NCBI GenBank assembly: GCA_020740775.1
Contig: JAHEWK010000004.1
Span: forward strand, 3,162,001-3,226,000
DNA: 64,000 nt
Direction: 5' to 3'
Source of the DNA: Ilyonectria destructans
Taxonomy: Eukaryota > Ascomycota > Sordariomycetes > Hypocreales > Nectriaceae
The number at the start of each line of letters is the position of its first letter. The first letter of the stretch is position 1. Below, in pieces: positions 38,683 through 59,915 of this stretch. The position numbers and the translations under genes are program-made. The notes under the pieces were generated by a model that was not told the origin of the DNA, ran no database searches, and saw only the letters and a program-made list of their open reading frames with translations.

Positions 38683-40723
38683 ATGGACACTTTGTAAGTA
38701 CTAGCAACGCTTGATGGACACACAAGCTTAGTGTAGGAGACGTTATTAACGTGCATATGCAGGGAAAAATATTCGGCATCATTTGCCTTCTTTGAAGGCC
38801 TCTGGGAGGTATGACATACTCTGTACCCAAGAAAGGGACTGCGTGAGATGGTCTTTCACATGCTTACTTGTCGTCTAGGCGGGCGTCAGCCATGTCTTTG
38901 TGAACTTGGGGTCAGATCACCCGGCTATCATGGAGGCCCTGGCCCATGGAGCCCATCTTAAAGGCATTAACTTTCCTAAAGTCATAACATGCCCACATGA
39001 GGTTAGTTCTAACCGCCGGGGAAGTCTCCGGAGAAACAAACCTGACTGGATATAGATGGTGGCCATGTGTATGGCCGATGGGTTTGCCCGCCTCACGGGA
39101 AAGCCACAGTGTGTGTTGGTCCATGTTGATGTGGGAACTCAGATGCTTGGGTGTGCTATGCACAATGCGTCAGTGGCCCGCTGCCCTGTTCTTGTCTTCG
39201 CCGGCCTCTCGCCATTTACCCTGGAGGGAGAGACTCGCGGATCCCGCACCGAGTATATCCATTGGCTTCAAGATGCCCCGGATCAAAAGGCCATCGTTTC
39301 TCAGTTTTGCCGCTTCGCCGGCGAGTTTAAGACTGGCAAGAACATCAAGCAGGTCCTCAACCGAGCTCTGCAGTTTGCCACCAGCGACCCTAAGGGTCCT
39401 GCGTATATCATGGGCGCCCGTGAGATCATGGAAGAGGAAATTACACCCTACCATCTGGATCAAGACGTTTGGGGCAGTGTCTGTCCAACTGGTCTGCCCA
39501 CTGAAGCACTGGACACCATTGTTTCTACACTGGCAGAAGCCGAGCGTCCGTTAATCATTGTCGGCTACACCGGCCGCAACCACGCTACTGTACCCGAGCT
39601 GGTTAAGCTGGTGGAAGCTATTCCCGGAACTACAGTACTGGACGGACTCGGTAGCGATGTTTGCTTCCCCTGGAGCCACCGCGCGTTCCTCGGAGTGGGC
39701 ATTGGGCGCCACGAGAGTATTGAAAAGGCCGACGCAATTCTCGTCATTGATTGCGATGTCCCGTGGATTCCGACCCAATGCAAGCCGCCCTCCGATGCAA
39801 AGATCATACATGTGGATGTCGATCCTCTTAAAGAGAATATGCCTTTGCATTACATCCCGGCCTTCCGAAGGTATCGCGCCGACTCAGAGACTGCGATCCG
39901 ACAGCTTAACGACTACATTTCTCAACACCAACGCTATTCTAATCTTACAAATATCGGGCCTTACAACAAACGATGGGAAGCCCTAGAAGTATCGCATCGA
40001 CAACACCTCGAGAAGCTCGCAAAGATCGCCGAACCACCTGCCGACCCCTTGGAGCCTGTGGGAACATCTTATCTTTGCTCAAAGCTACGGGCCACATGCC
40101 CCACAGACACCATCTGGTGCGTCGAGGCTGTCACAAATGCGCCCTTTATCTACGAGCAGCTCCAGGTAGATGAGCCCGGTCATCTCATCAACGGTGGCGG
40201 AGGTGGTCTTGGCTGGTCTGGAGGCGCTACGATTGGCGTGAAGCTGGCTTCAGATTGGCTGGCTGGGGGTCAAGGAAAGGGAAAGTTCGTGACACTTATT
40301 GTGGGTGATGGCACCTACATGTTTGGAGTTCCAAGCACCGTGTACTGGATTGCCCGGAGGTATGGGCTGCCAACGTTGACTGTGGTCCTCAGTAACAAGG
40401 GTTCGTATCTTCCAGTTACCTTATCCCCACTAGTGTCTACTCTGTACGAACTGACCCGAATAGGATGGAACGCTCCTCGAAATTCATTGACATTGGTTCA
40501 TCCCGATGGATATGGATCCAAGCTCTCGAATGAAGGTCTGAACATCTCATTTACTCCGACACCCGACTTCTCAGGCATAGGAAAGGCAGCATCGGGAGGA
40601 ACTGCATGGGCTGGAGTTGTCTCTACGAGCGAGGACTTGATTCGATTGCTACCGGAAGCTGTTGAAAAGGTGCAGTCTGGCGTTTCGGCGATTCTCGAAG
40701 TTAGACTTAAGGGGTCCTGGTGA
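38683..40723 (+). CDS. ThDP-dependent 2-oxoacid decarboxylase-type enzyme (benzoylformate decarboxylase-like)
   Basis: Five exons (38683-38693, 38763-38808, 38879-39001, 39056-40400, 40464-40723) give 594 residues. The first exon encodes only MDT plus part of a Leu codon. The pyrophosphate-binding fold is complete: N-terminal Pyr domain with the catalytic Glu in CPHEMVAMCMADGFARLTG, a middle domain (ERPLIIVGY...), and the PP domain with the ThDP/Mg motif VGDGTYMFG followed 24 residues later by LSNKGW (GDG...N). It belongs to the acetolactate synthase/benzoylformate decarboxylase superfamily. Family membership is secure; the exact reaction is not. A cytochrome b5-hydroxyacid dehydrogenase and an aldehyde dehydrogenase in the same cluster favour decarboxylation of an arylglyoxylate to an aromatic aldehyde. 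No mitochondrial presequence is visible. The exon 4 donor is the unusual GTTCGT. Confidence 0.88.
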
Positions 40724-41506
40724 TTTCAACTAGAATGATACTAGGTGTTTGCCAAAGCCTGTCCTTGAAGAAGGAATGTGAATCAACCAAGTTTCAGTTT
40801 TGGTTTAAAATTATTCAATTGATCACATTGACAAATGACTAAATTGTAAAGTTGGAATACAAGCTTTGATCGACATGGAGAGATTTCCCACTGAATTGTG
40901 ACCCTAATGACAAAGTCAACTTGTTTCTTGCATGTGAGTGCAGTAGAGAGAACTTTGCGTTCGAAAATAAACTTCAACATTGCCCTCTGTCATTCTCTCC
41001 AAGTCTTGGCTTGATGACTCGTTCCCAGTTGAACAAGGGCATGGGGTGGCACGTATCTACGCAGTCATCCTCCTCCTCCTTCAATACTTTGAGACTCCTG
41101 CGCCTCTCTACTGTAGGTTTACCCCGCGAAGTGAGTCTTTGCTTGGCAAGATATGTACCCGCCCGAATCCGTTAGTCATGATAGCCTCGGAACTGCCAGG
41201 AATCGTCGGAAAGTGGGTCTGGTGCAACCTACACGATGTACGTCTCAGGTTGTTATGGAGTCTCCGAAATTTGGTCAGGAACGCCAAGACAATAACAACG
41301 GGACCCTAGTCGGAATCCGAATCCATTCCGTCACGAGATTGTCGGGAAACCAGCCCAGCCCCAAGCGGCTAATCCCCTCACTCTCACTTCCGTTCCATCA
41401 CTGTAGATAGAGCGTCCGTTACACGGTTGTGAGCACTTAATGGCCTTGGTTGACGTGTTCACTAACAATAGTCGACCCACTATCTAGCCTTTTCCCATCC
41501 ATTACC
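40724..41506. other. Intergenic between decarboxylase and aldehyde dehydrogenase genes
   Basis: Terminator region of the ThDP gene and promoter of the ALDH gene, both on the plus strand. The open frames here are short and domain-free. Confidence 0.4.
41188..41392. promoter_or_regulatory. CGGAA/TTCCG elements upstream of the aldehyde dehydrogenase
   Basis: CGGAA at 41188-41192, 41207-41211 and 41311-41315; TTCCG at 41326-41330 and 41388-41392. The pair at 41311/41326 faces inward with a 10-bp spacer. All lie 115-320 bp before the ATG at 41507. Confidence 0.45.
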
Positions 41507-43139
41507 ATGAATCGCCTTAGAATTTATCGAAACCCGGGCGCTTCCTGGGCCCAGGCAAGGCACCTCGGAGGTCGCCGAAGCATCACGACGAAGAAGATTG
41601 TTCCCCTCATCATCGACGGGAAAGACATCGAGACTTCATCTACATTCCCAGTTATCAGTCCACTGACTGGCAAACACGTATGGTCTTTGTCCTGCGCGAC
41701 GAAGCAGCATGTCGAGGATGCTGTTCAGAATGCCCAAGATGCGTTTCCGGCCTGGTCGCGAACCAAGGCATACGAACGCCGCGACATCCTCCTCACTGCG
41801 GCTGACATCATGAATAAGCGGAGAGAAGAGCTGGGAGGGTACATGAACCAGGAGATCGGTGCTAATCAGGGTTACCAAGACTTTATTATTGGTCTTGCGA
41901 TTGATGGCTTCAAAGACACAGCTGGGAGAATTTCTGGCGCAATGCAGGGCTCCGTTCCAGAGTCCAATCTGGACGGAATGAAAGCCATCGTATACAAGAG
42001 GCCATATGGAGTGAACTTGGGAATTGCACCTTGGTAAGAAAGCAGCTCTTCGCCGTACCGTTGGCAGACGTTGGAAGCTTACTTATTCAACTAGGAACGC
42101 CCCATATCATCTTGGCCTCCGGTCCATTTTGTTTGCCCTTGCAACCGGAAACACCGCAATCCTCAAGGGAGCCGAATTCTCTCCTATGTGCTACTGGGCC
42201 ATTGCCGACATCTTTCGAGAGGCTGGGCTGCCCGATGGTTGCCTCAACCTCATCTTCCATTCGCCAGCGGATGCCGCCGTCATTACCGAGGAATTTGTAG
42301 CAAACCCACATGTGAGGAAGATCAACTTTACAGGCAGCACGAAGGTCGGCAGTATCATTGCAGCATCAGCAGGCAAGCATCTGAAGCCGGTTCTCATGGA
42401 GCTTGGAGGGAAGGCAAGCGCCATTGTGCTGGAAGATGCAAACCTTGAGCAGGCGGCGCTGCACTGTGCGAGAGGAGCTTTCATGAACGTGAGTTTGAAT
42501 CATTGTCAGTACGATTTGGATGAATGATGAATTAACAGGTGATTATAGGCCGGCCAAATTTGCATGTCGACGGAGCGTATCCTCGTGCACGAATCCGTCG
42601 CGCAGAAGTTCCAAGAAATTCTCCGCGACACCACCAAGCAGGTCTTTGGCGCTGCAAATGATACACCCATGCTTGTTACAGCAGCTTCAGCCAAACGAAA
42701 CCGGGGTCTTGTTACAGATGCAACTTCCAAGGGAGCCAGGTCGATGAAGATCTTTGATGGAGGCCATGAAGGCCAATACGAGACTCACATGCAACCCGTC
42801 ATCCTCAAAGATGTTGACCAGAACATGGACCTGTATCAGACTGAGTCTTTTGGGCCCAGCGTGTCTCTATTCACCTTTAAGACGGAAGAGGAAGCATTGG
42901 AGCTCGCCAACAATACCGAGTACGGCCTGTCAGCCAGTGTCTTCTCTGAAGATCTGAAGGCAGCATTCCGTGTTGCTGACGGGTTGGAGTCTGGAGCAGT
43001 GCACATCAATTCCATGACTGTGCACGACGAGTATCCTTTGCCTCACGGAGGAGTCAAGAAGAGCGGATTTGGTCGGTTTAATGGTTACCAGGGCCTGGAT
43101 GAGTTCCTTTACTACAAGACTGTCACCTGGATGGAGTGA
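41507..43139 (+). CDS. Aldehyde dehydrogenase (aromatic aldehyde / vanillin-salicylaldehyde type)
   Basis: Three exons (41507-42033, 42095-42488, 42549-43139) give 503 residues. ALDH landmarks are intact: LGIAPWNAPYHL (substrate/cofactor channel; split by intron 1), LKGAEFSP, FTGSTKVGSIIA (NAD loop), MELGGKASAIVL with the general-base Glu, the catalytic Cys in AGQICMSTERILV, ESFGPSVSLF and the C-terminal PHGGVKKSGFGRF. The layout is closest to salicylaldehyde/vanillin-type dehydrogenases, which oxidise aromatic aldehydes to acids with NAD(P). The first 28 residues (RLRIYRNPGASWAQARHLGGRRS) are basic and could be a mitochondrial presequence. Downstream of the decarboxylase gene, it would convert the aldehyde product to a benzoate. 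It converges with the flavocytochrome gene, with 120 bp between stops. Confidence 0.92.
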
Positions 43140-43259
43140 TGGTCAATCAAGTCGTGTCATAGAGTAACTTAGTCAAGGGATCCTTCATTGAGACTTAAGT
43201 CTAAGATTATTTCACATGCGTCCCATTCAATTCGCTCAATACCTAAGTCTCGAATTATT

Positions 43260-44827
43260 CTACAATCTTGCTGACCTCCTCAAGACTCTCTTCACGTAAG
43301 AATGACCCTCATCTGGAACTAAGTGATCTATATCTTTTGTGTTGACGTAGCGAGGATGAGCATCTCGCATCAAGTCAGTGATACCACACAAGCGCATGGT
43401 AGTCTCGACCTCGTCTTTGATAACTGTTTCCAGAGTTAGCAGGGGCCATGCAATCTTGAACCGTTTTGCTTACTCTCAATTGCGCGCTCAATGCCCTCCT
43501 CGCCATATCCAAGAGCGAACAGGAAGGATCTGCCGAACCCCACGGCAGAGGCCCCCAGGCAAATGGCTTTCACAACGTCTGAGCCTCGGCGAAATCCGCC
43601 ATCGACCAATATTTCCATGGCTCCGAGAACCTCAGGGCAGCTCTTGTGCAACTCAAGCAGAACAAGTATCGCGGGAGGAGCATTATCCGCTGCTCTACCT
43701 CCATGGTTACTCAGAACCACCCCGTCGCAGCCGATTTCATACGCAGTCTTTGCATCTTCAGCGCGCTGTATCCCCTTGACTAGAATTGGAACGCTTGTCA
43801 AGCTCCGCAGCCATTTAATATCGTCCCAACTCAAACTGGAGTCGATGAACGACGAGGCCAGACGGGCAAAACCAGCACCCTTCGCGTCCTTGCCTCCGAC
43901 AGATATTTTGATGCCAGCGATTGCCTGGGTCTCCGCAGAGCGTACACGTTCGTCTTCTTCGCGTTTTGGCACCACCGGGACGTCGGCTGTGACAAAGATG
44001 GCTTTGATCTTGCCCGAGGCCACCACTTGCCGAACTGCAGCCTCAGATTGCTTGCGATCTTTGTTCACATACAGCTGAAAAAAGGCATGCTTCGCTGTTT
44101 CTTCGAGGATTTCGGAGTATGGGTAGGAAGATGGTGTCGCGAAACAGTGGATGATGCCTCCAGCCGCCGCTCCTCGTGCTAATGTGAGCTCGCCTTCGGA
44201 GCCGCCAGTCTTTGCGCCGCCCGTTGGAGCGATGTAAACAGGTAGGTCCAACTTGCACCCAAACAGAGTCGTGCTTGTATTGACACTGGAGACATTGCGC
44301 ATCACAGCAGGTCTCAACCAGACTCTCTTCAGAAATTCCCTGTTTGCGTCCCTCGTGATGTTGTCATTGGAGCCGCTGTGGATGAATGCCATCGACTTCC
44401 TAGACAGGCTTGTCGCCGCCGCCGCTTCAAAATCATCCAAGTTGATAATGTCTTCAAGCTGCGTCTTTCCTTTAGCCTCGTCGACTTGAGGAGTGGTCAT
44501 GGCATTGGCATTCTTCCATTCGTCGGTGATGCTGGACGCATCAAGTGTTCCGATGTGTGCCTTTGCGTCAAGCGACCGTCGAATCAGAGAGGGTGCGTGG
44601 ACCTCATTGTATGTTGAGGAAGCATCTCGTCCCGCGTATTGGTATATGACTTCAAATATTTATTAATCTCTGGCTCCAAATTTTATTTGCGTGTGCATAC
44701 TTTCTGGTCCTCCAGGGTGCTCGGGCGCGAACGCTGTCATGTCGAATACTTCGCCATCCACAACAACCCAGACATCATCCGTCTTATTGTGTCTGGCGAC
44801 TTCAGATGCCGTAATTGTTTCTCCCAT
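43260..44827 (-). CDS. Cytochrome b5 - FMN-dependent 2-hydroxyacid dehydrogenase (flavocytochrome b2 family)
   Basis: Three exons (44827-44701, 44649-43474, 43423-43260) give 488 residues; the heme domain is visible only after splicing. The cytochrome b5 part is residues 1-70: TASEVARHNKTDDVWVVVDG, heme His37 in PEHPGG and His60 in EVHAPSLI. The FMN TIM-barrel follows from about 100, with YIAPTGGAKTGG, FFQLYVNKDRKQ, VLVKGIQ-like ILVKGIQRAEDA, the catalytic His/Arg block DGVVLSNHGGRAADNAPP and ILVDGGFRRGSDVVKAI. The family oxidises L-2-hydroxyacids (lactate, mandelate) and passes electrons from FMN to heme. There is no mitochondrial presequence, unlike classical yeast lactate dehydrogenase, so it may work in the cytosol. 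In this cluster mandelate or a hydroxymandelate is the favoured substrate, by inference. Confidence 0.92.
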
Positions 44828-45669
44828 TTCGTCTTCTGAGGCTTAATAATGAGATGCAGGTGCTAGATGTCCACTGTTCGTATCATAGGCAAGCTGTTTG
44901 AGGCAGGGGATGATTTGACGATGAGTCGAATTGAAAACAACCAAGTTCTTCTGGATGGGACAATCCCAATCGCATCTGTCGCTGGTGCCCGCGTCCCACC
45001 ATACACATCACTGGTATTACTATTCCGAAGAAAGTCGGCCAGATTTCAGGGCTCTTGGCTCCACCCACATGCGCCCTTCACAGGAATGGCAAATTGGACT
45101 CGGATCTAGACCATATTCCGATTACGATACTTCCGCCACTTTTCAATCCAAGGGAGGCATGGTTGTCTGGATACGGTTCCCCGAGCACACCGTGTGAAGG
45201 AGCAGCCTGTGGAGACAATGGCATGACCGGTTACATCGTCATACTTCATCCATGTGGAAAACGGCAAATGACTACGAATCAGAATTGAGTTTTGTCTACA
45301 GCCTAGTGAAAGTTTAGCAGGCATTTCCTAAATTTGAACGGAACTGCGGTTACCATGGCTGTAGTGTCGTTCCGGACGATGCCCGGAACGAGTGGGGCCA
45401 CCTCCGCGAAGTTGCACCATGTTTCCGTCGGACCTGGGCGATGTCCCTAGGTGAGCTGTGAGGCTCTCTGCATTTTCTGAGCATGGTTTGAGATGACTTC
45501 AATGGTCGTTTATTTGGGGTAGATTATCTTAACTAGGATGTCATTGTGGGCAACTGAACCTACTGTTTAAAGGTCCATCTTCCGCCAACAAACCAACAAG
45601 AGGAAGTCAATGCGGTAGTACATCCCAATCACCTCTCTAATCGTTAAACATCTTTATTGAAAATCCATC
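44828..45669. other. Divergent promoter region between flavocytochrome and FAD-oxidase genes
   Basis: Shared upstream region of two cluster genes on opposite strands. The short open frames here have no domain. It is rich in CGGAA/TTCCG elements (separate entry). Confidence 0.45.
45023..45584. promoter_or_regulatory. CGGAA/TTCCG elements including a perfect inverted repeat
   Basis: Half-sites: TTCCG at 45023, 45116, 45131, 45370, 45423 and 45580; CGGAA at 45340 and 45384. The strongest element is a perfect inverted repeat, with arms CGTTCCGG (45368-45375) and CCGGAACG (45383-45390) around a 7-bp spacer. Eight half-sites in 562 bp compare with about one expected by chance. Confidence 0.5.
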
Positions 45670-47246
45670 ATGTCTGCAGCACCACCCCGCTATTCTACTC
45701 GTGCTGAGTATCCTTCAAAAGTCCTAATTCGCGGGACCCCAGAGTATGAGCGATGCCGGCAGAACAATCCATCCGCAGACACTCCATCTCGATACCCGCA
45801 GGAGATCCATGTCGTCGAAACACCCAATGACATTTCCCTTGCCCTCAAGCGAGCGACTGAACTTGGTGTTCCTGTGGGAGTCCGCTCATCAGGCCACATT
45901 TTCAACTTGCCTAATCTCATCGACGGTGGCATCTTGATTGACACGACGAATCTAAACCGAAGCATTGAATATGATTCCATCACAGAGGAAATTTGCTTTG
46001 GCCCTGCTTGTCGCGTTGAAGAGCTTGCCGCTAGGCTCAAGGACATCAACCGATTCTTCCCCCATGGTCATGCTCCTACAGTTGGCTCTGGCGGCTTCCT
46101 CCTGGCTGGCGGTCAGGGATGGTTTGTCCGAGGCTGGGGCGCTACCAACCAGACATGGATCAACAAGATCGAAATGGTCGTTCCCGATGGCCGAACCGTC
46201 ATCGCAAGTCGCACCGAGAATCGCGATCTTTTCTGGGCTGCTCGCGGCAGCGGCTTGGGTTTCTTTGGAGTTATCACCCGCTTCTGGGGAAGAACCATCA
46301 AGACGTCGCTAATGTGGGAGAGAATCCTGAAATTCAATATCAACAGCGACAACTACATGGCGCTCATGAGCTGGGCCATTGAACGTGGTCGCGACACCCC
46401 CAAGTATGGCACGGATCTGAACCTCACCATCGACTACCCCGAAAAGTATGACCCTTCATACACTACGGACGCCATCCCGATTAACGGGAAACTTACAATG
46501 TCGCTGAATCTGCTTTGCTACACCGATACGATCAGAGAGGCCCGCACCCTGTTGAGCGCTTACGACAAGATGACGCCTGAAGTTCAGGCGGCGCTGTTAG
46601 AGATGCATCCCGTGCAGCCGAGGACAGTTGAGCAGGTATTTGCACGGAAGCGCCGCTTCCTCGGTAATGATAGCAGAGACCGATGGCAGATCAACAGCAT
46701 CATGAATGATCCCGATGTTCCTCTTGAGAGAGTGAGTAAAGTCTCTCAACCAACCAAACTCCGCTAATTCTGTTTAGTTGCTGGAAGCGATCAAGCCCGC
46801 AATGCTGGAGCTGCCCACCAGAACCTCATCTGTGTTCCTGTGCCATTGCGACATTGTCCCCGATGAGGAAGATGCCGCCCTTAGTCTGCCCCAAGACTTG
46901 TACATCTCTACCATTACCGGATGGACGGATCCTAGAATGGAGCCTGCCATTTACCAGCCTATGCGTGATCGATACAGGCGAGCTTTCCCTGTCGCCATCG
47001 GCATGTATATCACGGAGCTGGATGTTAACTGCGACGATGCCAATGTAAGAGCCCCATGCTGCAGAAGCTCAATGGCAATGTCCCTTACTAATGTTTAATC
47101 AGACCAAGGTCATGAGCGATACTGCTCTCGCCAAATTTCTCAAGATCCGAGAGAAGTGGGATCCTAAAGAGTTGTTCCCCAATTATAAGAAGTTTGTCAA
47201 GGCCCACGACAAGATCAACCGCCTTCAGAATAAGGCGCAGCTGTAA
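45670..47246 (+). CDS. FAD-linked oxidase (BBE/GOOX-like, FAD_binding_4)
   Basis: Three exons (45670-46731, 46778-47044, 47103-47246) give 490 residues. The FAD domain shows VPVGVRSSGHIFNLPN, where His is the expected covalent FAD anchor. It is followed by GGILIDTTNLNRSIEYD, FPHGHAPTVGSGGFLLAGGQGW and WAARGSGLGFFGVITRF. The C-terminal segment WDPKELFPNYKKFV is the usual family end, though without the BBE-type N-Y-x-N motif. The second flavin anchor Cys of bicovalent berberine-bridge enzymes is not found where expected, so flavin attachment is probably single. No signal peptide, hence likely intracellular. Such oxidases act on alcohols, phenols or hydroxylated rings with oxygen. The exact substrate is open; position in the cluster suggests an aromatic intermediate. 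Confidence 0.87.
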
Positions 47247-49662: not shown

Positions 49663-49693
49663 AAGACGACAGTGTAGACCTTATTCTACTACA

Positions 49694-50509
49694 ATGCAGA
49701 CAAGGTGTCTACGAAGGGTGGCTATCGCCATTCCACGAATTCAGTCAATACGGCCAGCTGTAATCGATCTCCCAATTCTACCTGGCTTCAGGCTACAAGC
49801 TAGGAAATACTCCAGTCAATCAGCCGAAGCACCAGCTGCCAGCAATCCAAGAGTAGCGTCATGGCCAACACAACACGGTCGGGCATCGCATATGCCAGGC
49901 AGGCCGCGTAGGATTGTGATAGGCATCACTGGCGCAACGGGAACAGTTTTTGCCGTCCGAATCCTTTCCATCCTACGCGAGCTCGGTATTGAGACACATC
50001 TCGTCATCAGCAAGTGGGCGCTGGCAACACTAAAATATGAGACTTCCCTGACGGAATCAGACATTCGGGGTCTCGCCACTGTGAACTACACGGCGAAAGA
50101 TTTATCGGCACCTATCGCATCGGGCTCATTCCAACATGATGGCATGATGATTGTGCCGTGCAGCATGAAGACGCTGGCTGCGGTGCGCTCCGGGTTTTGC
50201 GACGACCTGATTTCTCGGGCTGCAGATGTCAGTCTCAAAGAAGGCCGTCGCTTGATGATGGCTGTACGTGAGACTCCACTGAGCGATATCCACCTCGATA
50301 ACATGTTGTTCCTACGACGCGCTGGCGCTGTGATATTCCCGCCAGTTCCGGCCTTCTATCACCGGCCCGAGAGTCTGGATGATTTGATTGACCAAAGCGC
50401 TGGAAGGATGTTGGATATGATGGGCATTCATACTGATGGGTTTGAGAGGTGGGAGGGATTCCGAAGGGATAACACAGGGCCTGTTAGGGTAGCGGCTCAA
50501 ATGTCTTAA
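49694..50509 (+). CDS. UbiX/PAD1-type flavin prenyltransferase
   Basis: A single exon gives 271 residues from ATG 49694 (ACTACAATGCAG); an upstream in-frame extension has only non-ATG starts. The first about 80 residues are basic and Ser/Arg-rich (QTRCLRRVAIAIPRIQ...ARKYSSQSAEAP), a likely mitochondrial presequence. The core has the FMN loop RRIVIGITGATGTVFAVRIL, SGSFQHDGMMIVPCSMKTLAAVRSG and the C-terminal LLFL-like block LDNMLFLRRAGAVIFPP, then PAFYHRPESLDDLIDQSAGRMLDMMGI. UbiX enzymes join dimethylallyl phosphate to FMN to make the cofactor required by UbiD enzymes. Divergent pairing with the UbiD gene is the classic PAD1/FDC1 arrangement. It converges with the Zn2Cys6 gene, 103 bp apart. 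Confidence 0.95.
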   Translation: MQTRCLRRVAIAIPRIQSIRPAVIDLPILPGFRLQARKYSSQSAEAPAASNPRVASWPTQHGRASHMPGRPRRIVIGITGATGTVFAVRILSILRELGIETHLVISKWALATLKYETSLTESDIRGLATVNYTAKDLSAPIASGSFQHDGMMIVPCSMKTLAAVRSGFCDDLISRAADVSLKEGRRLMMAVRETPLSDIHLDNMLFLRRAGAVIFPPVPAFYHRPESLDDLIDQSAGRMLDMMGIHTDGFERWEGFRRDNTGPVRVAAQMS

Positions 50510-50612
50510 TTGTAATGACCGTCATCGCGTTCCCGATGAATAGATACCATACATTGTGTTAATTTACGTGTACATGATGTAGTAAATATGTCGTCATTAA
50601 TCCTTGATGATG

Positions 50613-53139
50613 TTAAAACGGTCCTTCCGCAAAGAATATGTTCTCGTCGCCCATCGGCCAGTTCGATAGAAGTGACTCGGACCATCCCAATTGCAAGTCA
50701 TTCTCGGGAATCGCACCCATAGCTGTGCTAAACGGATTGGAAATATTGCCATCGACAGGTGGTAGGAAATTGGAGCCTTGGCCAGTGAAGCGACCCTTCC
50801 AGTTTGATCTCAACGCGCTGGTGTTCTGTACATATTTGACAGCATGTGGCATCGAAGGCTCGGGCTCGCCAAGATGGATCCTGGGGAAGTGGTTATTCAT
50901 GTCGGGAAGGTTGTCTGATAGCAAGTTGAGAGTGACTAGCGTTCCACGCATTTCTGAGAGTCTCTTCCATAACCTACGGGAGGCCCGTGATGTGTTCGCG
51001 TATCTACCAGAGACTGTAAGGGTCATCCGAAAGATTTGGCTAACAGAGTCAACAAAGTCGACGGACAGGCTGCTGGCTAGAGACGCGTGATTCTGCTTTA
51101 CGTATGCAACCAACAGAAAGAACAAGGCACAGGCAGATGCCAGAAGGTGCTGGTAGTAAGGATGTTGCATGCGATAAATATCCGTAGTGGTGTCCAGTGT
51201 GAAGAGAACGTTGACCATGTGTGACACGAGGTCAAGTGCAGGGCGGAGTTGTTCTCTACCAGTCTCCACCTCCGACGCGGCAAAAAAGCCAGGTCGCAAA
51301 AGATAACTGCGGATAGAGTCTGCACGAAGGTGCAGGATAATAGCCCAGGACGGAGGGCGAGCTGATGGATTCGAATGCCAGGTTCCAAAGTTGCTGAGCG
51401 ATTGGTTGCCCACGGCCTTCTTTCGCCACTGCTCAACCTGGAAGTTCATCACATCGAAGGCATCCTGATCTTCGTATCTTTCTCCTCTTGCAGCGCACGA
51501 GATGGGCTCGTTGAATTTGTCGCTTATGAGGATAAAGGCCAGCATGGCCTTCAGATATGGGTTTTTGATCTGCCATTGACCCAGGATTGTTAGGGCCAGT
51601 TTAGAACTGTTGGAGGTCATTACTTACAGATGATTTGGGTAGTGGTTCGAAGCTGGAATGTTGGAAGTTTGATGGGAGCCCTGTCGAAGCACTCCATTGG
51701 CGGTCGAGGGTCACAACGCTGCACATGATGATGCTGGTCTCCGTGCGTTCAGCTTCCGAGTCCAAGACATGCCTCGAGACATCACCATTGTGAAATCCCA
51801 GTTCCATCAACACCCGCCCGGCTATACCGCACATCCGCCATGCAGACCGTGTCATGTCTTGGAAGAAGAAGTATAGAGCCTGTGATACTCGAAGTCAAAA
51901 GCCGTTCTCGGTGGGAATTGATGCAGATTTCTTACCGCTAGCAAGATGATTTTCACATCTTTGATGCTAGATGCAGGCGATACCACTTTGGCATTAACAA
52001 TGTCCTGGAAGCTGGACTGCAGAATGCCCTCAATGTCGGAGTTGCCACTGGACAGTGTTGACTCAGCACGCAAAGCAATGGCCAGAGCAAGGTTCAAAAT
52101 GAGAAGGTCGTTTTCATCCGAGCCGGGCACTGGCCGTCTAGGAGAGTAGTCTCGTGGGTCAGAATGCGCCGGCGCTTCGCCCGTGTACCAGACTCGAGTT
52201 TTGCACATGAGATCGTCTAAATTCACCATCGGATGGTACTCCCCAACGACTTCTTGGTAGACAAACAGAAGACGCGCGGCTTCTTGCAAGTTCATAAGTG
52301 ATCGGAATCGCTGGAGCTGCAAATTATCTCTTCGGTTGCGAGGTGGCAATGGGTCCTTGCTTCGTCCGCCGCCATCAACACCCGCAATGCCACTGTCATC
52401 ATCAGAGGCCTCCTCATCCTCGATGCTTGCTAGTTGCGGGCGCTGTGAGGGCGATGTTGAAGAGCTTCCCTCTCGAATTTTCATCTGGGCCATATTCAAG
52501 CTGTAGTCGGGACTTGTCGGTCCGTAGAAACGTTGGCTGGCCTGGCGATGGGGTTGTCCATCCGATCCCGCTGTCTCTCTGCCCGAGCCAGGATCAATTC
52601 GTTCGGGGGATTGGGATTGGAAGCCCCCGGGAAGGCTCATTGTCGATGGAATGTTCGGAACCATTGGCTGATTATTGGAAAGCTGGACACGGGATGTCAG
52701 GCTATCGAGTTGGTCTTTGAGACTGGAGACGAGTTCGAGGATGGAGCCTCCGCCGGCACTTCAAAGGGAGGAGTGAGCTCAAGCTGAGTGAATGGGGTAT
52801 TTAATCTTTGGGGGGCAAGAGGCCCAAAATTCGATAATCGACATACCTTGACATGGCCGGGTTCCCTTGCTCATCCAGTTGGTGAGAATTGACCTGATCC
52901 GCATCACTGGCCGAAGCCGGAATATCCGTCCAGTCCCCAGGGCCGGTGCCATTGCTGAAGTTGCAATTTTGTCCTCGGCCAGCACAATGTCCACAGGGAT
53001 GTCGTCCGTCGCATTTCCCCTTTCGTCGCCGACATGCGTCGCAAGCTCTGAGCGCGTAGGGTGCTCGCCGTTTCCCCGAATCGGACCCTCGCTGGGTGTT
53101 TGCGCGCTTCGTCCCCCGAATGTCTATTGGCTCGGCCAT
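50613..53139 (-). CDS. Zn2Cys6 fungal transcription factor (probable cluster regulator)
   Basis: Four exons (53139-52847, 52758-51936, 51879-51628, 51569-50613) join to 774 residues. The zinc cluster is intact with spacing C-x2-C-x6-C-x5-C-x2-C-x6-C (CDACRRRKGKC...CGHCAGRGQNC, residues about 32-60). Exon 2 opens with a heptad-like dimerisation helix (SILELVSSLKDQLDSLTSRV), consistent with binding of paired sites. An acidic, Ser-rich linker (EDEEASDDDSG) precedes the fungal-specific regulatory domain (LYFFFQDMTRSAWRMCGIAG). Similar regulators control PAD1/FDC1 loci in other fungi. Its position inside the cluster and the CGGAA/TTCCG elements in neighbouring promoters suggest it activates these genes; the inducer is unknown. 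An ATG 99 bp upstream is less likely. Confidence 0.92.
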
Positions 53140-54510
53140 TGTCGCTGTTTTGAATGCCCAATAGTGCACGGCGGAAGCCAGGGGTATGGTTGACTGCGTT
53201 TGGTGGCTTCGTTGAGATGCAGACGTGAGGCGGAGCAAGATGGTCGGAAGTAACAGCTAGTGAGACAATGATGACGCAGCAAACTACCCATGAGCAGCTT
53301 CAGGTTTGCATGCAGCCTTGTTGCCCAGCTATCAGTTCCACCAGTCCGAGTCTCCACTCAGAATGATAAGAGGTTCAAGGTCTCCAAGTTCAACAGCTCC
53401 AAGTTGCCTCAAAGCTCGAGCCCGTTCATCGCATGGAAGTGCGGGGAAGAATCGGCCGGCAGACGGCTATCTCACACCCCTTACCCGACGAAGCACACCA
53501 GCCAATAAAGGTTTGGACGGTAATCAACTTGGATGTACGTTTAACGCACTGCGGGGTCCATGATCCGGGTCCCTGGTCGTTTACTTATTAGGAATCAAAT
53601 CCTGGTCATCTGTATCTTATCTGCCATCGATCTCGACACCTGCATTGCATGCTCCTTCGTTGTCCACGATACACGCTGTTCATGACGTTCACAAGAAGGC
53701 GTACGGAGTTAAAAAAGGAATTGAAGGATACAAATTACGGATGTCATGGGGCAGGTATGTTTCTTCATCCATTAACTCAACACACTTCGATTTATCGCAC
53801 CATCACAGATGTACAACACAACACATGAGAGTGCTCATTGCAAATAGCCACGACAAGGCCCATCATCAGTCTACATTCTTTCTCGGTCCATCTTTACCAA
53901 AAGACGGCGAATCATAAAAGATGCTGACTGAGACATTGCATCGATCTGGGATACAGCATGACGGGATTCTCCAAGACCTGGTTGTTGGTGGTGGCAAAAT
54001 AATTGCTCCAGGGTAGCGGGTAGTTGCTAATGTCGGCAAACATTCACTCTATGAAGACCTGATAACGAAGTGGCCTACCCGACTTTACTATTCCAACAGT
54101 TAAAAGATAAAAGTTGGGCTTCAAGTGCTAGGCAAGATTAACATGCATCCAGAATTATCATGATCATCGGGCCAACTCAGTATCATCACACAAGGCTATA
54201 CAAACGCCGTTCCGATGCCCCACCGCGTTCCGAAGAAGCGGAATGACGAGTGGGGGCTTTATCCACACCGACGACGAACAAGGTTGTGATCAAGTCATTC
54301 GCAGCGTATTGGAGACGACGCGTAGAGATAATGGACTCTCGTGGAATACTTGTCTGTTGCTGGTAGTTTGGGTTACATGTCAGGTAGGAGACGAGTCCCT
54401 CCTAAAAAACCGACATTTGACATGTTTCATGCTCCTCAATCATTCACCCTCCTTCACAGCAAAGTGCAAACTCCTCTTCAATTAAGACCTAAGAACCTCA
54501 AGAAATCATC
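53140..54510. other. Divergent intergenic region between regulator and SDR
   Basis: 1.37 kb without a supported gene. One CGGAA lies at 53245-53249 near the regulator start; three more half-sites lie at 54210-54243 near the SDR. Confidence 0.4.
54210..54243. promoter_or_regulatory. CGGAA/TTCCG elements upstream of the SDR
   Basis: TTCCG at 54210-54214 and an inverted pair TTCCG-AAGAAG-CGGAA at 54228-54243, about 270-300 bp before the ATG at 54511. Confidence 0.4.
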
Positions 54511-55414
54511 ATGACTAGTTCATCAGTTCAAAGTAGTCATGTTCGCCCGACTTTTGAACTGCGCGATCGCAACTACATCGTTACTGGTGGTGCGCAGGGC
54601 ATTGGGTTTGCTCTCACCCGCGCAATTTGCGAAATGGGAGGCAATGTCGCTGTGCTGGACATCCAAGAGCAGCCCGTGAAGGAATTTGATTCGCTAAAGG
54701 ATGAATTCGGCACCAAGGTGCTGTATTTCAAGACGGATGTGACGAACCAGCAGAGTCTAGAGACATCGTTCGAGAGCGCAGTTAGGGAGCTTGGATCAAT
54801 TGATGGTTGCGTGCCGTGCGCTGGGATTGCAATCGACAAGCCGTTTCTTGACCAAACTTGGGATGAGTTTACCAGGATCCAAGAGATCAACGTAAGCACT
54901 TTTCCCATGAATCACCTGTATGGCTCTGAGATGAGAATTAACCCGAGATATACTCTAGGTTCGAGGAACATTCTTCACGGCACAGCTTGTTGCTAGGCAG
55001 ATTATCAGCCAAGGAACTCCTGGTAGCATGGTATTGATTGCCTCCCAATCAGCGCACATCGCTCTCCCAGGTTATAGAATGGCTGCATATAATGCTTCTA
55101 AAGGCGCAGTCATGATGCTCGCCAAGGTGCTGGCAGTTGAGCTCGCACCAAGCAAAATCCGAGTCAACACCATCTCCCCGGGATTCGTCGACTCTGAAAT
55201 GACGCGAGCAGTCCGGGCAACAAAGTCTGAACGGGCTGGGGCTCAAATGTGGCTGTCACCGCCGAATCAACGTCTTAGTACGACGGATGATTTGACGGGC
55301 GCCGTGATCTACCTGCTTAGCGATGCAGCAAGGCATACTACGGCTGCGGATATACCTATCACAGGAGGGCTCCATGCAGGTACGATTGACGGCATTATTA
55401 GTTACGAAGTTTAG
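54511..55414 (+). CDS. Short-chain dehydrogenase/reductase in the aromatic cluster
   Basis: Two exons (54511-54891, 54959-55414) give 278 residues. Classical SDR motifs: NYIVTGGAQGIGFALTRAI (TGxxxGIG), DVTNQQ, the NAG-equivalent CAGIA, the catalytic Ser in VLIASQSAH and YxxxK in AAYNASKGAVMMLAK, then RVNTISPGFVDSEMT and a C-terminal DIPITGGLHAG. The loop after strand 2 is LDIQEQP, whose acidic residue favours NAD(H). The enzyme is cytosolic with an alcohol/ketone substrate not readable from sequence. Sitting between the regulator and the FMO gene, it may act on a ring or side-chain alcohol in the same pathway. A mannitol/sorbitol-dehydrogenase-like role is the main alternative. Confidence 0.9.
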
Positions 55415-56062
55415 TTAAACCTATGAAACTATGCGAGAATAATGCGATACAGTGGTAGCTGAGCAAGTGCCCCTACGCCAGTCTCATAAATATTGGCGAG
55501 TCATTTGTCCCTGACTCGTTTCACCACTGAAATGTGCCGATCGCGATGACACCAGCCCTCGCATGGAACGCAACAAGTCAGTCACTGAAGCCGTCCAACC
55601 TTAGTTCAGACTAGCTTCCCACTCGAAAGATTAGGGGTAGTTAGAGTGGCGACCTATCGGAACAAGACAAGTTGCTGGACCGGAACCGGAACTTCCGATC
55701 CCTGTCCTAATGGCTTGAATTCACACACAGGCTAATGGACGCCACTAGGTAGGAACCCATATTTCCCATAGCAGACCATAGATAATGCAGCACGGAAGCC
55801 ACAATAGTCTTGCTCCTATTCCGTGTTTGAACAAAACCTTGGACTAGCATGATAAGGAGGCTACCCGATATGAACACCTCAATAGCGTCGAACTAAGATA
55901 AGAACCATAGCAAAAGCTAATACCAAGCCTTCCCCACTGAAAAAGCGAGGAGCAACACCCCTTTTTCAAGCTCAGTTTCTGTACCAGATTCAATACGAAC
56001 CTCTTGCCAAGATTTGCAACCCCTCGACCCGAAAGACGTATCAGAATCTCCCCCTGGCCACG
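55415..56062. other. Intergenic upstream of the FMO-like gene
   Basis: No gene supported; contains the dense CGGAA cluster listed separately. Confidence 0.4.
55658..55697. promoter_or_regulatory. Dense CGGAA/TTCCG cluster upstream of the FMO-like gene
   Basis: CGGAA at 55658-55662, 55681-55685 and 55687-55691, then TTCCG at 55693-55697: four half-sites in 40 bp, the last two forming CGGAA-C-TTCCG. The cluster lies 366-405 bp before the ATG at 56063. Confidence 0.5.
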
Positions 56063-57836
56063 ATGGCAGGAGAGTATGATGTAGTGATTGTTGGTGCTGG
56101 TGAGTTGATCAACTTCTACAAGGAACATGGTGATAGAATGCATTTACTCACAAATCGCAGGTTGGTTTGGCCTGGCTGCTGCGAAGGCCTATGTCCAGCT
56201 TCATCCAGATTCTAAGTTTGCGGTCTTGGAATCTGCCGAGTCATGTGGCGGAACTTGGTCCAAGAATCGCCTCTACCCAGGCCTCAAGTCAAACAACATG
56301 ATTGGAACCTACGAATATCCGGATTTTCCTATGACGGAGGAAAAGTATGGTGTCAAACCTAACAACCATATTCCGGGAGCCGTCTTGCACCGCTACCTTA
56401 CCGACTTTGCCAAGCATTTCAATTTCTTCAACTCCATTCAATTTAACACAAGTGTTGACTTGGTAGAGCCTAATGGTTCAAATGGCTGGCGTCTATCTGT
56501 TACAACGCCAAGTGGTCCTCAATCCATCGAGACCGCCAAACTGATCCTTGCTACTGGACTCACGTCAACGCCGAATATTCCCGTGTATAAGAACTCGGAG
56601 AATTTCGGGGCTCCATTGTTCCACGCTAAAGACTTCTGCCGAGAGGCTCCAAACGTGGGGAAAATCAAGAACGCTGTAGTCGTTGGCGGCGCCAAGTCTG
56701 CGTTCGACGTCGCCTATGCCTTGGTCCTGGACGGGGCCGAAGTTGATTTGGTCATTCGACCCAATGGCCAAGGACCTGTCTGGATAGCGCCGCCTTTTGT
56801 CACACCGTTCAAGAAGCGATTAGATCAGCTTCTCAATGTTCGTTGGATGACGTGGTTTAGTCCATGTCCCTGGGGCGACGCAGATGGCCATTCCCGTGTG
56901 CGCCGCTTTCTCCATGGATCTGCCATAGGCCGATTCCTCGTCGATACGTTTTGGAAGGTTCTTGCTGGAGATGTTGTATCTGCCAATGCATATGATTCCC
57001 ATCCTGAGCTAAAGAAGCTCAAGCCGTGGAACTCGGCTTTCTGGATTGGCAGCGGGCTGAGCATTTTAAACTACGACACAAGTCTCTTCGACCTGGTTAA
57101 ACAGGGAAAGATTAAGGTTCATATCGACAACATTGTCCGATTAGAACGCAAGAAGGTCATTCTCTCATCTGGAGAAGCTCTAGATGCTGAAGTCCTCGTT
57201 CTGTCCACAGGTTGGAAGAAAGAATCGTCGATCAAATTTTCTGGTCTCGGCCCCGAAGGACTTGGCCTTCCGTACACCAAATCGGAGAAAGAGGTTCTCA
57301 ACCAAGAAGCAGACAAAAAGGTCCTGTCTCTATTTCCCCGCCTCAAAGACCAGCCGAAGCTCCGTTTTGAGCCCAAGGACATGGATCCCTTGCGGTACTA
57401 CCGTTTCATGGTTCCGGCCTCCATGGTTGGCTCCCGCAGCTTGGCATTTGCGGGCATGGTTTCCTCGGTCAGCACCTCGGTGTGCGCAACCATTCAAGGA
57501 CAGTGGATCTCTGCGTATCTTGATGGGAAGTTGGATCGTCTTCCGACCTCAATGACCGAGATCACAGACGAAATCATGCTACATACCCAGTGGGGTAAAT
57601 GGCGTTTTCCATGTGGCTATGGTGCCAGTCTACCAGACTTTGTTTTCGAAGGCCTGCCATATGCTAATTTATTGATGAAGGATCTTGGGCTAGGCATCAT
57701 CCGTAAAGGAAGTTGGTTATCTGAGTTAACCTCGCCGTATTTGCCAAGAGACTTTGGTGGACTTGTTGAGGAGTGGAAGGACATTCATAAAAGTGAATCA
57801 GCAGCCGAGCAGGAGGACAGTTTGAAGGAATTATAG
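56063..57836 (+). CDS. FMO-like FAD/NADPH-dependent monooxygenase
   Basis: Two exons (56063-56099, 56161-57836) give 570 residues. The short first exon supplies MAGEYDVVIVGAG, completing the FAD motif GAGWFG across the junction. Other signatures are VLESAESCGGTWSKNRLYPGL, the GxGxxG-like NADPH site VVVGGAKSAFDVAYALV (first Gly variant) and LVLSTGWKKES, the ATG-like strand. The FMO fingerprint FxGxxxHxxx(W/F) is not clear, so it is neither a textbook FMO nor a Baeyer-Villiger enzyme. Predicted role: NADPH- and oxygen-dependent oxygenation of a small hydrophobic substrate. The C-terminal helix region (LLMKDLGLGIIRKGSWL) could touch membranes. Position and upstream motifs tie it to the aromatic cluster. 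Confidence 0.88.
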
Positions 57837-58335
57837 ACGGAGATCTGGTTGAATCAACAAATAGATCGTTCCATCTTATACATATCCTCTTTAATAGCCC
57901 ATTTCAACATTACTGTATGAGCTCTGCATCTTCTGTTACCGGGTGTAGTGTTAAATGTCTGCTCCTGTTGTTTGCGGCCACTGTATGCCTTTGATGTATC
58001 TGATGATATTGAGTAATTAATATTGACTCCTGTACTCTACGTAAAGACATAAAGTGCCCTTGGGTTTGTAGAACGTAATAAACTGGGATGGATACCTTGG
58101 GTTTACTTATCAGTAGTAAAGGGTTCCAGTTTTACCACAAACTCTTTTTTTAACATGTCACATTCATCACTAGGACCGCTACGGAACGCGAAGTCGCAAT
58201 GTTGTAAATATCTGTGTCACAGATGACAACAGTGATACTGCCATTTGTATAAACTAGACTACCTCATTAACCTGATGAACACGTAGTTTCAACGGGGAAA
58301 TGGTGTGGTCAGCTGGAAAGCTCTATTTCAAGCCA
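57837..58335. other. Interval between convergent FMO and transporter genes
   Basis: A/T-rich 3' regions facing each other. No gene or repeat seen. Confidence 0.4.
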
Positions 58336-59915
58336 CTAGAGCTTCCATCGGAAGGAAGGATGCTTCCAGTCCAAATCTTCCTCCTGCTCCGATGCGGCAT
58401 CCATCGCTGCAAGTGCCTCAGCTTCATTTCTGTCTCTCGAAGCATTGTCTCTAATCATCCATACATGCGTTAGGGATGAGACGATCAAAATCGAGACAGT
58501 AGTTGCTAAGTTCAACCCATTACCGATAGGGTAGTCTGGGCCATCCCAAGACAGGAAAGACCATGTCGATATAAGCCCACCAATGCTTCCAAACATGGCA
58601 TTGATAGCAAAAGCTGATGACCTTGCTGTATCTGACACCACATTCGCAGAAGCTTGGCTGGTCGTTAACGTCCCTAAACTGAAGATGGAGGAAGCAACAA
58701 GGAAGATTGCTGCGTATCTGACTGTCGCGTTATCGGATGCGAGGAACATGATATAACCGACTATAACGAGAGGCGTGCAGAGAGTGGAAAAGATTTGACG
58801 TTGATCCATACGCCAACTCAGAAGCGCGAAGATGATTGTCAGAAAGGAGCCCATGACATACGGAGGAACTGTGTAAAGTTGTTGCTGGACAGTGGACTTA
58901 TCTCCGTAGATGGTGCGAACGATAGTCGGCGTAAAGAACGCAAGTCCTTGAGCGGTGATATTGGTGAATAGAAAGATCATAGCATTGCTCAAAACAACAG
59001 GGGATGTGATACCACGGATGAGCTTCTTCTTGTCGATTCGATCCAGCACCTTGGGTTGTTCCATTCTCTCAGATCGAATCCGTGCCTCGGCAAGCTCTTT
59101 CTCATCGTTAGAAAGCCAGTAAGCGGTGGCAGGGCGATCCGTTAATGTAATGAACCCAATAAGTCCGAGACCGATAGTGATGATTCCTTCTATCGCAAAT
59201 ATCATACGCCACGTCTTGAGAGTCCCAAAGTGATCTAGACGAAGGATTGCGGACGCGAGAAGGCCACCAAAAGCCCCAGATAAGGGTGCGCTGACGATGT
59301 AAAGGCCGATTCGAAAGGTGAGCTCAGATCGGCGATACCAACGAGACAGGTAGTATGCCATTCCTGGGTTCATACCGGACTCAAAGAGTCCGAGCAGGAA
59401 TCGCACACCCATTGCCTGTGGCACAGTGTCGACCCAAGCAGTTGCAATTGAGCAAGCTCCAAAGCATACAGTAAGTATGGGAAGGAACCAACCCGGGCCA
59501 ATGAGTTTGCAGACAATGTTGGATGGGATCTCAAAGAGAATGTAGGAAATGTAGAATATGGAGAGGGTCGCATTGTAGTCAAGCCCTGTCATATTAAGAT
59601 CCCCCTCTAGGCCAGCAATTCGAGCGTTTCCTGCACCAACGGTTAGCTAGACGCAGAATGTTGTGGCGGATTTGAGCCATACCAATATTAGCCCTGTCGA
59701 TGAAGCAAAATAAATAAATGAGAACAACAGTTGGCATGATCATCCAATCAATTTTACTTCGAAGACGACTCTCGGCTTTGGGGTCAAAAGCAATACTCGA
59801 GGAGCCGACCCTGACGCCTGTTAGATCAATGGCCACATCCAACGGGGGTTGGATCTTACCTCTCCAGTGCGCCATGTTCCAGCGAAGGAGGGGATTTCTC
59901 AGTGGAGTCACTCAT
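58336..59915 (-). CDS. MFS transporter, Dal5/TNA1-like anion:cation symporter
   Basis: Three exons (59915-59860, 59810-59683, 59630-58336) give 492 residues. The start MSDSTEKSPPSLEHGALER joins to RVGSSSIAFDPKAESRLRSKIDW, the standard N-terminus before TM1 (MIMPTVVLIYLFCFIDRANIGNARIAG). The family motif LDYNATLSIFYISYILFEIPSNIV is intact. GVRFLLGLFESGMNPGMAYYLSRWY in TM4 and the central-loop LTDRPATAYWLSNDEKELA also match. Dal5-type carriers import organic anions such as allantoate, nicotinate, tartrate and aromatic carboxylates at the plasma membrane. At the edge of an aromatic-acid gene set it is the likely uptake system, by inference. Its promoter has three CGGAA/TTCCG half-sites. Confidence 0.93.

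What the first reader, a model, noticed from the sequence alone, without database searches (positions are those of the whole stretch)
38683..59915. Candidate mandelate-type aromatic-acid gene cluster with its own UbiD/UbiX pair, regulator and transporter
Seen: ten adjacent genes, namely a ThDP decarboxylase, ALDH, cytochrome b5-FMN hydroxyacid dehydrogenase, FAD oxidase, UbiD, UbiX, Zn2Cys6 factor, SDR, FMO-like enzyme and Dal5-type carrier, with no unrelated gene between them. Known: the first three families carry out 2-hydroxyacid to 2-oxoacid, 2-oxoacid to aldehyde, and aldehyde to acid, the mandelate route to benzoate, while UbiD/UbiX decarboxylate aromatic or acrylic acids. Inference: one fungal locus joins a mandelate-like upper path with a prenyl-FMN decarboxylation step and a flavin oxygenase. 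I do not know of a described cluster with this content.
Basis: partly seen in the sequence, partly recalled or inferred. Interest (0 to 1): 0.82.

Follow-up and report, generated by a model that had tools for sequence, protein, structure and literature searches.

The report
Fungal two-decarboxylase aromatic-acid gene cluster
A plant-root fungus carries ten neighbouring genes that look like one pathway for trimming the side chain of plant aromatic acids; its central genes also sit together in several distantly related fungi, which makes an unsolved step of fungal aromatic breakdown testable.

Summary
The ten genes exist as described and are intact (38683-59875). The genome is Ilyonectria destructans by contig match. 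The UbiD belongs to a non-canonical FDC group (64 of 110 tree taxa, support 1.0) in which catalytic Glu282 is Asp in 67 of 67 members with a residue there, against Glu in 46 of 46 canonical sequences. Its members share contigs with this type of ThDP enzyme (17 contigs) and b5-FMN dehydrogenase (12); canonical UbiDs share none. Locus tags put UbiD and ThDP within 6 genes in 6 of 7 assemblies. A canonical UbiD-UbiX pair lies on contig C3, so this is a specialised paralogue. The mandelate reading is plausible, not proved: the ALDH is nearest to vanillin and salicylaldehyde dehydrogenases and the b5-FMN enzyme has small residues typical of mandelate dehydrogenases, but family-wide, and the ThDP enzyme fails the benzoylformate decarboxylase model. 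Best reading: a cluster that shortens C6-C3 acids to C6-C1 acids through two decarboxylations. New variant of a known kind; our searches listed no such cluster.

The parts
38683..40723 (+). ThDP-dependent enzyme, 594 aa, exons 38683-38693, 38763-38808, 38879-39001, 39056-40400, 40464-40723
   Evidence: Pfam TPP_enzyme N, M, C; last intron seen by comparison with paralogues, checked; NCBIfam PRK08327 522 bits, cut-off 456
41507..43139 (+). aldehyde dehydrogenase, 503 aa, exons 41507-42033, 42095-42488, 42549-43139
   Evidence: Pfam Aldedh; nearest solved structures vanillin and salicylaldehyde dehydrogenase
43260..44827 (-). cytochrome b5-FMN 2-hydroxyacid dehydrogenase, 488 aa, exons 44827-44701, 44649-43474, 43423-43260
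   Evidence: Pfam Cyt-b5 and FMN_dh; nearest flavocytochrome b2
45670..47246 (+). FAD-linked oxidase, 490 aa, exons 45670-46731, 46778-47044, 47103-47246
   Evidence: Pfam FAD_binding_4 only; nearest solved structures an FAD-binding oxidoreductase and EncM, over about 190 aa
47571..49240 (-). UbiD, non-canonical FDC group with Asp at AnFdc1 position 282, 537 aa, exons 49240-48161, 48104-47571
   Evidence: Pfam UbiD_N, UbiD, UbiD_C; alignment with AnFdc1 and 120 homologues
49694..50509 (+). UbiX flavin prenyltransferase, 271 aa, one exon
   Evidence: Pfam Flavoprotein; NCBIfam ubiX_pad over cut-off
50613..53139 (-). Zn2Cys6 transcription factor, 774 aa, exons 53139-52847, 52758-51936, 51879-51628, 51569-50613
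   Evidence: Pfam Zn_clus and Fungal_trans
54511..55414 (+). short-chain dehydrogenase/reductase, 278 aa, exons 54511-54891, 54959-55414
   Evidence: Pfam adh_short_C2; nearest solved SDR 3r1i
56063..57836 (+). FMO-like flavoprotein monooxygenase, 570 aa, exons 56063-56099, 56161-57836
   Evidence: Pfam Pyr_redox_3 and FMO-like; nearest phenylacetone monooxygenase, Baeyer-Villiger motif absent
58336..59875 (-).
   Evidence: Pfam MFS_1; the Dal5 label itself was not tested

Best explanation
A catabolic cluster that shortens the side chain of plant C6-C3 aromatic acids to C6-C1 acids by two chemically different decarboxylations. UbiX makes prenyl-FMN. The specialised UbiD decarboxylates a substituted cinnamate-type acid to a vinylarene (family chemistry shown elsewhere; substrate inferred). 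The FMO-like enzyme, SDR and FAD oxidase take the vinyl group to an arylglycolate, that is a mandelate (inferred; weakest part). The b5-FMN enzyme oxidises it to an arylglyoxylate, the ThDP enzyme decarboxylates that to an arylaldehyde, and the ALDH makes the benzoate-type acid (inferred from family and nearest relatives). The carrier brings in the acid and the Zn2Cys6 protein switches the set on (inferred). Shown here: intact genes, distinct UbiD and ThDP clades, repeated linkage of UbiD, ThDP and b5-FMN genes in other fungi, and ThDP beside UbiX or ALDH in two gene models each.
For: Shared contigs (from contig lengths printed): 75 non-canonical UbiD entries x 49 ThDP-group entries 17 contigs, x 119 b5-FMN entries 12; ThDP group x b5-FMN 13; 44 canonical UbiD x any 0; 68 other ThDP x UbiD or b5-FMN 0. 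Locus tags: UbiD and ThDP within 6 genes in 6 of 7 assemblies with ordered tags in both lists. Gene models that run two neighbours together: UbiX+ThDP in 2, UbiX part 71% to the window UbiX and 55-56% to a shorter piece of the C3 UbiX; ThDP+ALDH in 2, ALDH part 87% and 75% to the window ALDH. UbiD keeps N168, R173, Q190, E233, E277, and E282D keeps considerable activity in AnFdc1 (PMC5818171, passages). ALDH nearest to vanillin and salicylaldehyde dehydrogenases. b5-FMN has Gly at b2 position 198 and Pro at 230, where true mandelate dehydrogenases have small residues (PMC10153336, passages), while the b5-FMN enzyme of the sister locus on C45 has Ala and Phe there (alignment). Styrene to benzoate with styrene oxide and mandelate as suggested intermediates was reported for Pleurotus (PMC6776626 discussion).
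Against: No substrate or expression data. The 198/230 residues are family-wide (Gly 117 of 120, Pro 88 of 120), Tyr143 is Phe in the window, and a b5-FMN protein of Talaromyces stipitatus proved to be an L-lactate dehydrogenase (PMC8491902, passages). The ThDP enzyme scores 109 bits on the benzoylformate decarboxylase model (cut-off 493), and BFD His281 is not matched in the alignment shown. No P450 or epoxide hydrolase is among the ten genes. Most listed non-canonical UbiD entries show no shared contig in the capped lists, and 8 of the 17 shared contigs are over 1 Mb, one of them (Clonostachys) not local by tags. In Exophiala spinifera (194 genes off), Sarocladium and Thyridium (tags) the listed b5-FMN gene is elsewhere. 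Linkage of SDR, FMO, FAD oxidase, regulator and carrier in other fungi was not tested. No promoter motif stood out by my estimate.
Confidence: 0.5

Rival explanations
1. An aryl-lactate route: the b5-FMN enzyme oxidises phenyllactate-type acids to arylpyruvates, the ThDP enzyme makes arylacetaldehydes, the ALDH makes arylacetates, and UbiD handles the accompanying cinnamate.
For: A sister locus in the same genome (C45:3341663-3357810) holds a ThDP paralogue (56%), a b5-FMN dehydrogenase and an MFS-like protein, a homogentisate dioxygenase, a flavin monooxygenase and a 2OG-Fe oxygenase, and a gene that looks like a Zn2Cys6 factor by eye; homogentisate is an arylacetate.
Against: The window ALDH is nearest to C6-C1 aldehyde dehydrogenases; the sister b5-FMN enzyme is only 36% identical and differs at positions 198 and 230.
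Confidence: 0.22
2. A biosynthetic cluster in which UbiD and the flavin enzymes tailor a small aromatic secondary metabolite.
For: The FAD oxidase resembles EncM-like oxidases, and UbiD matches the bagremycin/ferroverdin model BagN/FevL below its cut-off (318 against 1000 bits).
Against: No polyketide, peptide or terpene synthase among the ten genes or the three flanking models tested; the block is a chain of degradative families; its core recurs in several classes of fungi (classes recalled).
Confidence: 0.12
3. A weak-acid or phenolic detoxification locus like the Aspergillus and Penicillium sorbate clusters; the ThDP, ALDH and b5-FMN neighbours do unrelated work.
For: UbiD, UbiX and a Zn2Cys6 gene side by side as in cdcA-padA-sdrA (PMC6776626, PMC9200314).
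Against: A canonical UbiD-UbiX pair is on C3; the window UbiD lacks the canonical pocket; linkage to ThDP and b5-FMN is seen for this UbiD group and not for the canonical ones listed.
Confidence: 0.08
4. The ThDP and b5-FMN enzymes are ordinary acetolactate and lactate enzymes in a chance neighbourhood.
For: A number of homologues are named acetolactate synthase or cytochrome b2 / L-lactate dehydrogenase, and one fungal b5-FMN protein is a lactate dehydrogenase (PMC8491902, passages).
Against: The window ThDP falls in a separate clade (38 taxa, support 1.0), and linkage is found for that group and not for the 68 other ThDP entries; the C1 ThDP paralogue has no UbiD, UbiX, b5-FMN or ALDH of the window type in its 10 kb.
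Confidence: 0.03

Closest known systems
Aspergillus niger cdcA-padA-sdrA cinnamate/sorbate decarboxylation cluster (PMC6776626)
   Same: UbiD, UbiX and a Zn2Cys6 gene side by side
   Different: UbiD of another clade with a rebuilt pocket; the A. niger neighbours in its Table 3 are a flavin reductase-like protein, a hypothetical protein, a BTB protein, a carboxylesterase, a glucoamylase and a sulphatase, with no ThDP, b5-FMN or ALDH gene; a canonical UbiD-UbiX pair is separate here on C3
Bacterial mandelate pathway (recalled: Pseudomonas putida mdlABCD)
   Same: FMN hydroxyacid dehydrogenase, ThDP decarboxylase, ALDH in one cluster
   Different: b5-fused dehydrogenase, ThDP enzyme of another family, prenyl-FMN pair and flavin enzymes added
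Penicillium roqueforti SORBUS cluster (PMC9200314, passages)
   Same: UbiD/UbiX genes with a regulator and flavin enzymes
   Different: no mention of mandelate or 'aromatic' in its main text (0 occurrences); its UbiD copies are 71-83% to A. niger CdcA, so probably canonical (inference)
Flavocytochrome b2-type L-mandelate dehydrogenase (Rhodotorula graminis; cited in PMC10153336; its make-up recalled)
   Same: b5 plus FMN domains, catalytic residues, small residues at positions 198 and 230
   Different: Phe at the position of Tyr143; activity unknown

Membership tests
UbiD prenyl-FMN decarboxylases | Glu-Arg-Glu/Asp network and a UbiX partner | tested here: met
   R173, E277 and D282 in the window; among 71 listed group members 70 of 70, 68 of 68 and 67 of 67 with a residue there; UbiX adjacent; the Glu/Asp rule from PMC5818171 (passages)
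Canonical fungal FDC / CdcA | Glu282, Met283, His284, Cys316, Thr323, Ile327 | tested here: not met
   Window has D, Y, L, P, S and a gap; the 46 canonical sequences (C3 and 45 hits) keep them, 46 of 46 except 44 of 46 at Cys316
cdcA-padA-sdrA cluster | SdrA-orthologous regulator between or beside the pair | tested here: inconclusive
   Window regulator shows no similarity to the two predicted pieces beside the C3 pair (best E 0.74), but those pieces only look regulator-like by eye (no Pfam match for the first; the second not scanned) and SdrA itself was not compared
Benzoylformate decarboxylase | NCBIfam PRK07092 at cut-off | tested here: not met
   109 bits against a cut-off of 493; passes PRK08327, a ThDP family without a named function, with 522 bits
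Benzoylformate decarboxylase | Ser26, Glu47, His70, His281 (numbers recalled) | tested here: inconclusive
   The Glu and His of the first domain align with BFD and are conserved in the group, as is a Ser matched by recall only; His281 is not matched in the alignment shown
Flavocytochrome b2-type L-mandelate dehydrogenase | b5 and FMN domains with catalytic His/Arg/Lys/Asp/Tyr | tested here: met
   Y236, D265, R272, K334, H358, R361 kept, domains; the equivalent of Tyr143 is Phe
Flavocytochrome b2-type L-mandelate dehydrogenase | Small residues at b2 positions 198 and 230 | tested here: met
   Gly and Pro, but shared by most of the 120 listed homologues (117 and 88)
Flavocytochrome b2-type L-mandelate dehydrogenase | Mandelate oxidation | not testable with these tools
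   needs assay
Aromatic (benzaldehyde-type) aldehyde dehydrogenase | Nearest characterised relatives act on C6-C1 aldehydes | tested here: met
   Top three distinct solved sequences: vanillin dehydrogenase 342 bits, salicylaldehyde dehydrogenases 332 and 292 bits; next 257 bits. No NCBIfam ALDH model reached its cut-off among the 25 shown
Baeyer-Villiger monooxygenase | FxGxxxHxxxW/Y/F motif (recalled) | tested here: not met
   No match to the motif

The most novel reading that the evidence does not exclude
A conserved fungal pathway, inherited as a cluster in Sordariomycetes, Eurotiomycetes, Dothideomycetes and relatives, that converts substituted cinnamates to benzoates by two decarboxylations (prenyl-FMN, then thiamine) through a vinylarene and a mandelate, a third route beside CoA-dependent beta-oxidation and direct cleavage, with a UbiD clade of new specificity.
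Probability: 0.35. Interest if true: 0.78.

Novelty: new variant of a known kind. Interest (0 to 1): 0.62.

Why it matters
[quoted passage not shown] niger (PMC12388069, passage), and mandelate was suggested on the styrene-to-benzoate path in Pleurotus (PMC6776626). This cluster names ten genes for such a route and points to a UbiD clade of 71 listed sequences with a consistently rebuilt active site, a source of new prenyl-FMN decarboxylases. The fungus is Ilyonectria destructans; from recall it rots ginseng roots, and the starts of abstracts listed tie ginseng soils to phenolic acids.

Tried and rejected
Rejected: that the window UbiD/UbiX/regulator is the Aspergillus cdcA-padA-sdrA cluster, on the UbiD active site and the separate C3 pair. 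Rejected: that the best structure hit of the b5-FMN enzyme, a flavocytochrome b2 mutant (1szf; that it is the A198G/L230A mutant is recalled and read from its alignment), proves a mandelate substrate, since Gly198 is family-wide. Rejected: Baeyer-Villiger assignment of the FMO. Led nowhere: promoter motif search (63 spaced CGG patterns; best CGG-N8-CGG, 9 seen against 2.9 expected, in 5 of 7 promoters, which I judge not significant for 63 patterns); bacterial relatives (3 loci with UbiD at 34-36% and UbiX at 50-54%, none of the other eight proteins at E 0.001 in the fetched flanks); bacterial context of the ThDP family (3 of 296 genomes matched at E 1e-110, none over cut-off).

Counts: the tables were typed by hand. 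One search leaves out hits without a contig length (P0115; P0133, P0143, P0203; P0337), so 75+44 of 120 UbiD, 49+68 of 120 ThDP and 119 of 120 b5-FMN hits were used. The tool lists only the best 120 hits of each search and one longest contig per cluster of sequences; equal length is taken to mean the same contig. P0168, counted in the ThDP group, falls outside the clade; it shares no contig. Trees left out 12 UbiD and 13 ThDP fragments or fusions. The gap at Ile327 (71 of 71) includes some fragmentary models that lack the region. Tag pairs were picked by eye; JGI-style protein numbers were not used. Papers other than PMC6776626 (sections 11 and 15 and passages) were seen as passages or listings only.


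Full report
What is there. The window lies at C34:3162001-3226000 of a 71.7 Mb genome in 74 contigs. The UbiD is 98% identical to an Ilyonectria robusta entry. A listed I. destructans protein (P0262, contig of 3,605,468 bases) matches the gene on our contig C45, which has the same length, at 95.5% and 98% over two segments, the first spanning an intron. The genome is therefore I. destructans. A small gene finder trained on 264 kb of the genome, then manual splicing against families and paralogues, gave ten intact models. One search shows no other model of 120 aa or more inside the block, and the three flanking models tested look unrelated.

The UbiD is not the usual one. AnFdc1 is its nearest solved relative. 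The genome has a second UbiD on C3 (52% identical), next to its own UbiX (55% to the window's) and a gene that looks regulator-like by eye (no Pfam match for its first piece). In an alignment of 120 homologues, 71 hits and the window differ from 46 canonical sequences (C3 and 45 hits, A. niger among them) at the same places: Glu282 to Asp (67 of 67 with a residue), Met283 to Tyr/Phe/Ala, His284 to Leu/Met/Ile (one Gln), Cys316 to Pro, Thr323 to Ser (one Ala), a gap at Ile327 (71 of 71, some of them fragments), His397 to Asn or Thr; N168, R173, E233 and E277 stay, and Q190 in all but one. Ile187, a pocket residue, is Gly in 52 of 71. Four Aspergillus-type sequences share most of this but keep Glu282. 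The reference row, P0115, is an A. niger chain with Gly at 439, where the others have mostly Leu. A FastTree of 110 sequences puts the 64 non-canonical ones together (support 1.0), 60 of them the Asp form (0.997). PMC5818171 (passages) reports that E282D in AnFdc1 retains considerable activity and that part of the UbiD family has Asp there, so these enzymes should be active. PMC12153358 (passages) counts the equivalents of Ile187, Gln190 and Ile327 among the pocket residues and found that changing the last to Ala in a cinnamate decarboxylase cost most activity, which fits another substrate here but could also mean weak activity.

The cluster is conserved in its core. Homologue lists of UbiD, ThDP and b5-FMN proteins print contig lengths and often ordered locus tags. 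Equal contig lengths: non-canonical UbiD (75 entries) with the ThDP group (49) 17 contigs, with b5-FMN (119) 12; ThDP group with b5-FMN 13; canonical UbiD (44) with any, 0; other ThDP (68) with UbiD or b5-FMN, 0. Nine of the 17 contigs are under 1 Mb. Tags: UbiD and ThDP lie 2-6 genes apart in Stachybotrys, A. nanangensis, Neopestalotiopsis, Exophiala spinifera, Colletotrichum jinshuiense and Monosporascus, and far apart in Clonostachys (6 of 7). UbiD and b5-FMN lie 2-6 apart in 3 of 4 (E. spinifera 194). ThDP and b5-FMN lie 2-11 apart in Fusarium nematophilum, E. aquamarina, Knufia, A. nanangensis and Neopestalotiopsis, but not by tags in Sarocladium, Thyridium or E. spinifera: 5 of 8. Two gene models join UbiX to ThDP, with the UbiX part closer to the window's than to the C3 copy, and two join ThDP to ALDH, 87% and 75% to the window ALDH. 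These fungi belong to Sordariomycetes, Eurotiomycetes, Dothideomycetes and others (classes recalled).

What each enzyme suggests. ThDP: nearest solved family is benzoylformate decarboxylase, weakly (71.5 bits, with the 615-aa model); it passes the NCBIfam family PRK08327, which has no named function, and fails the benzoylformate decarboxylase model. It falls in a clade of 38 (support 1.0) whose group has particular residues such as His59 beside the catalytic Glu60, Asn in the others. b5-FMN: catalytic residues kept, Phe for Tyr143, Gly and Pro at positions 198 and 230. PMC3526519 and PMC10153336 (passages) describe small residues there as favouring mandelate; but most of the 120 homologues share them, and one fungal b5-FMN protein is a lactate dehydrogenase (PMC8491902, passages). 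ALDH: vanillin and salicylaldehyde dehydrogenases first. FAD oxidase, FMO and SDR: families only.

Reading. Put in order, the enzymes can take a cinnamate-type acid to a benzoate-type acid: decarboxylation by UbiD, oxidation of the vinyl group to a mandelate by the FMO, SDR and FAD oxidase, then dehydrogenation, ThDP decarboxylation and aldehyde oxidation. The last three steps are matched by family; the middle is inferred; the substrate is not known. The sister locus on C45 with ThDP, b5-FMN and homogentisate dioxygenase genes supports an aromatic role for the ThDP/b5 pair but also the rival arylpyruvate route; its b5-FMN enzyme differs at positions 198 and 230. The genome has many intradiol dioxygenase matches (13 below 1e-20) into which benzoates could feed.

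Known or not. The A. niger cluster (PMC6776626: passages, sections 11 and 15), the SORBUS cluster (PMC9200314, passages) and the 2025 review (PMC12388069, passages) describe the canonical pair. Searches of the open-licence library for UbiD or FDC with mandelate, benzoylformate decarboxylase, cytochrome b2, vinylguaiacol or styrene in fungi, judged by titles and starts of abstracts, listed no cluster like this one. Most subscription papers are not in that library.

Noticed in passing
G000 C45:3341663-3357810 (L037, L038): Second aromatic-type locus: ThDP paralogue, flavin monooxygenase, 2OG-Fe oxygenase, homogentisate dioxygenase, a gene like a Zn2Cys6 factor by eye, b5-FMN dehydrogenase with other residues at positions 198 and 230, MFS-like protein.
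   Followed up: partly
G000 C45:3205567-3207075 and 3200861-3201253: A paralogue of the window's FAD oxidase (50%) lies about 5 kb from an intradiol dioxygenase match.
   Followed up: no
G000 C3:809141-814312 (L020, L002, L024): UbiD with all canonical residues and its UbiX, beside a gene that looks regulator-like by eye; a cupin-domain protein follows at 814564-815662.
   Followed up: partly
G000 C45:1336760-1338326 (L039): Closest paralogue of the b5-FMN dehydrogenase (about 60%), with Tyr kept at position 143 and no other window-type protein in the 9 kb fetched.
   Followed up: partly
window 34241-35914: GMC oxidoreductase just outside the block, with a weak PPPDE-like gene between; no link to the pathway was tested.
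   Followed up: no
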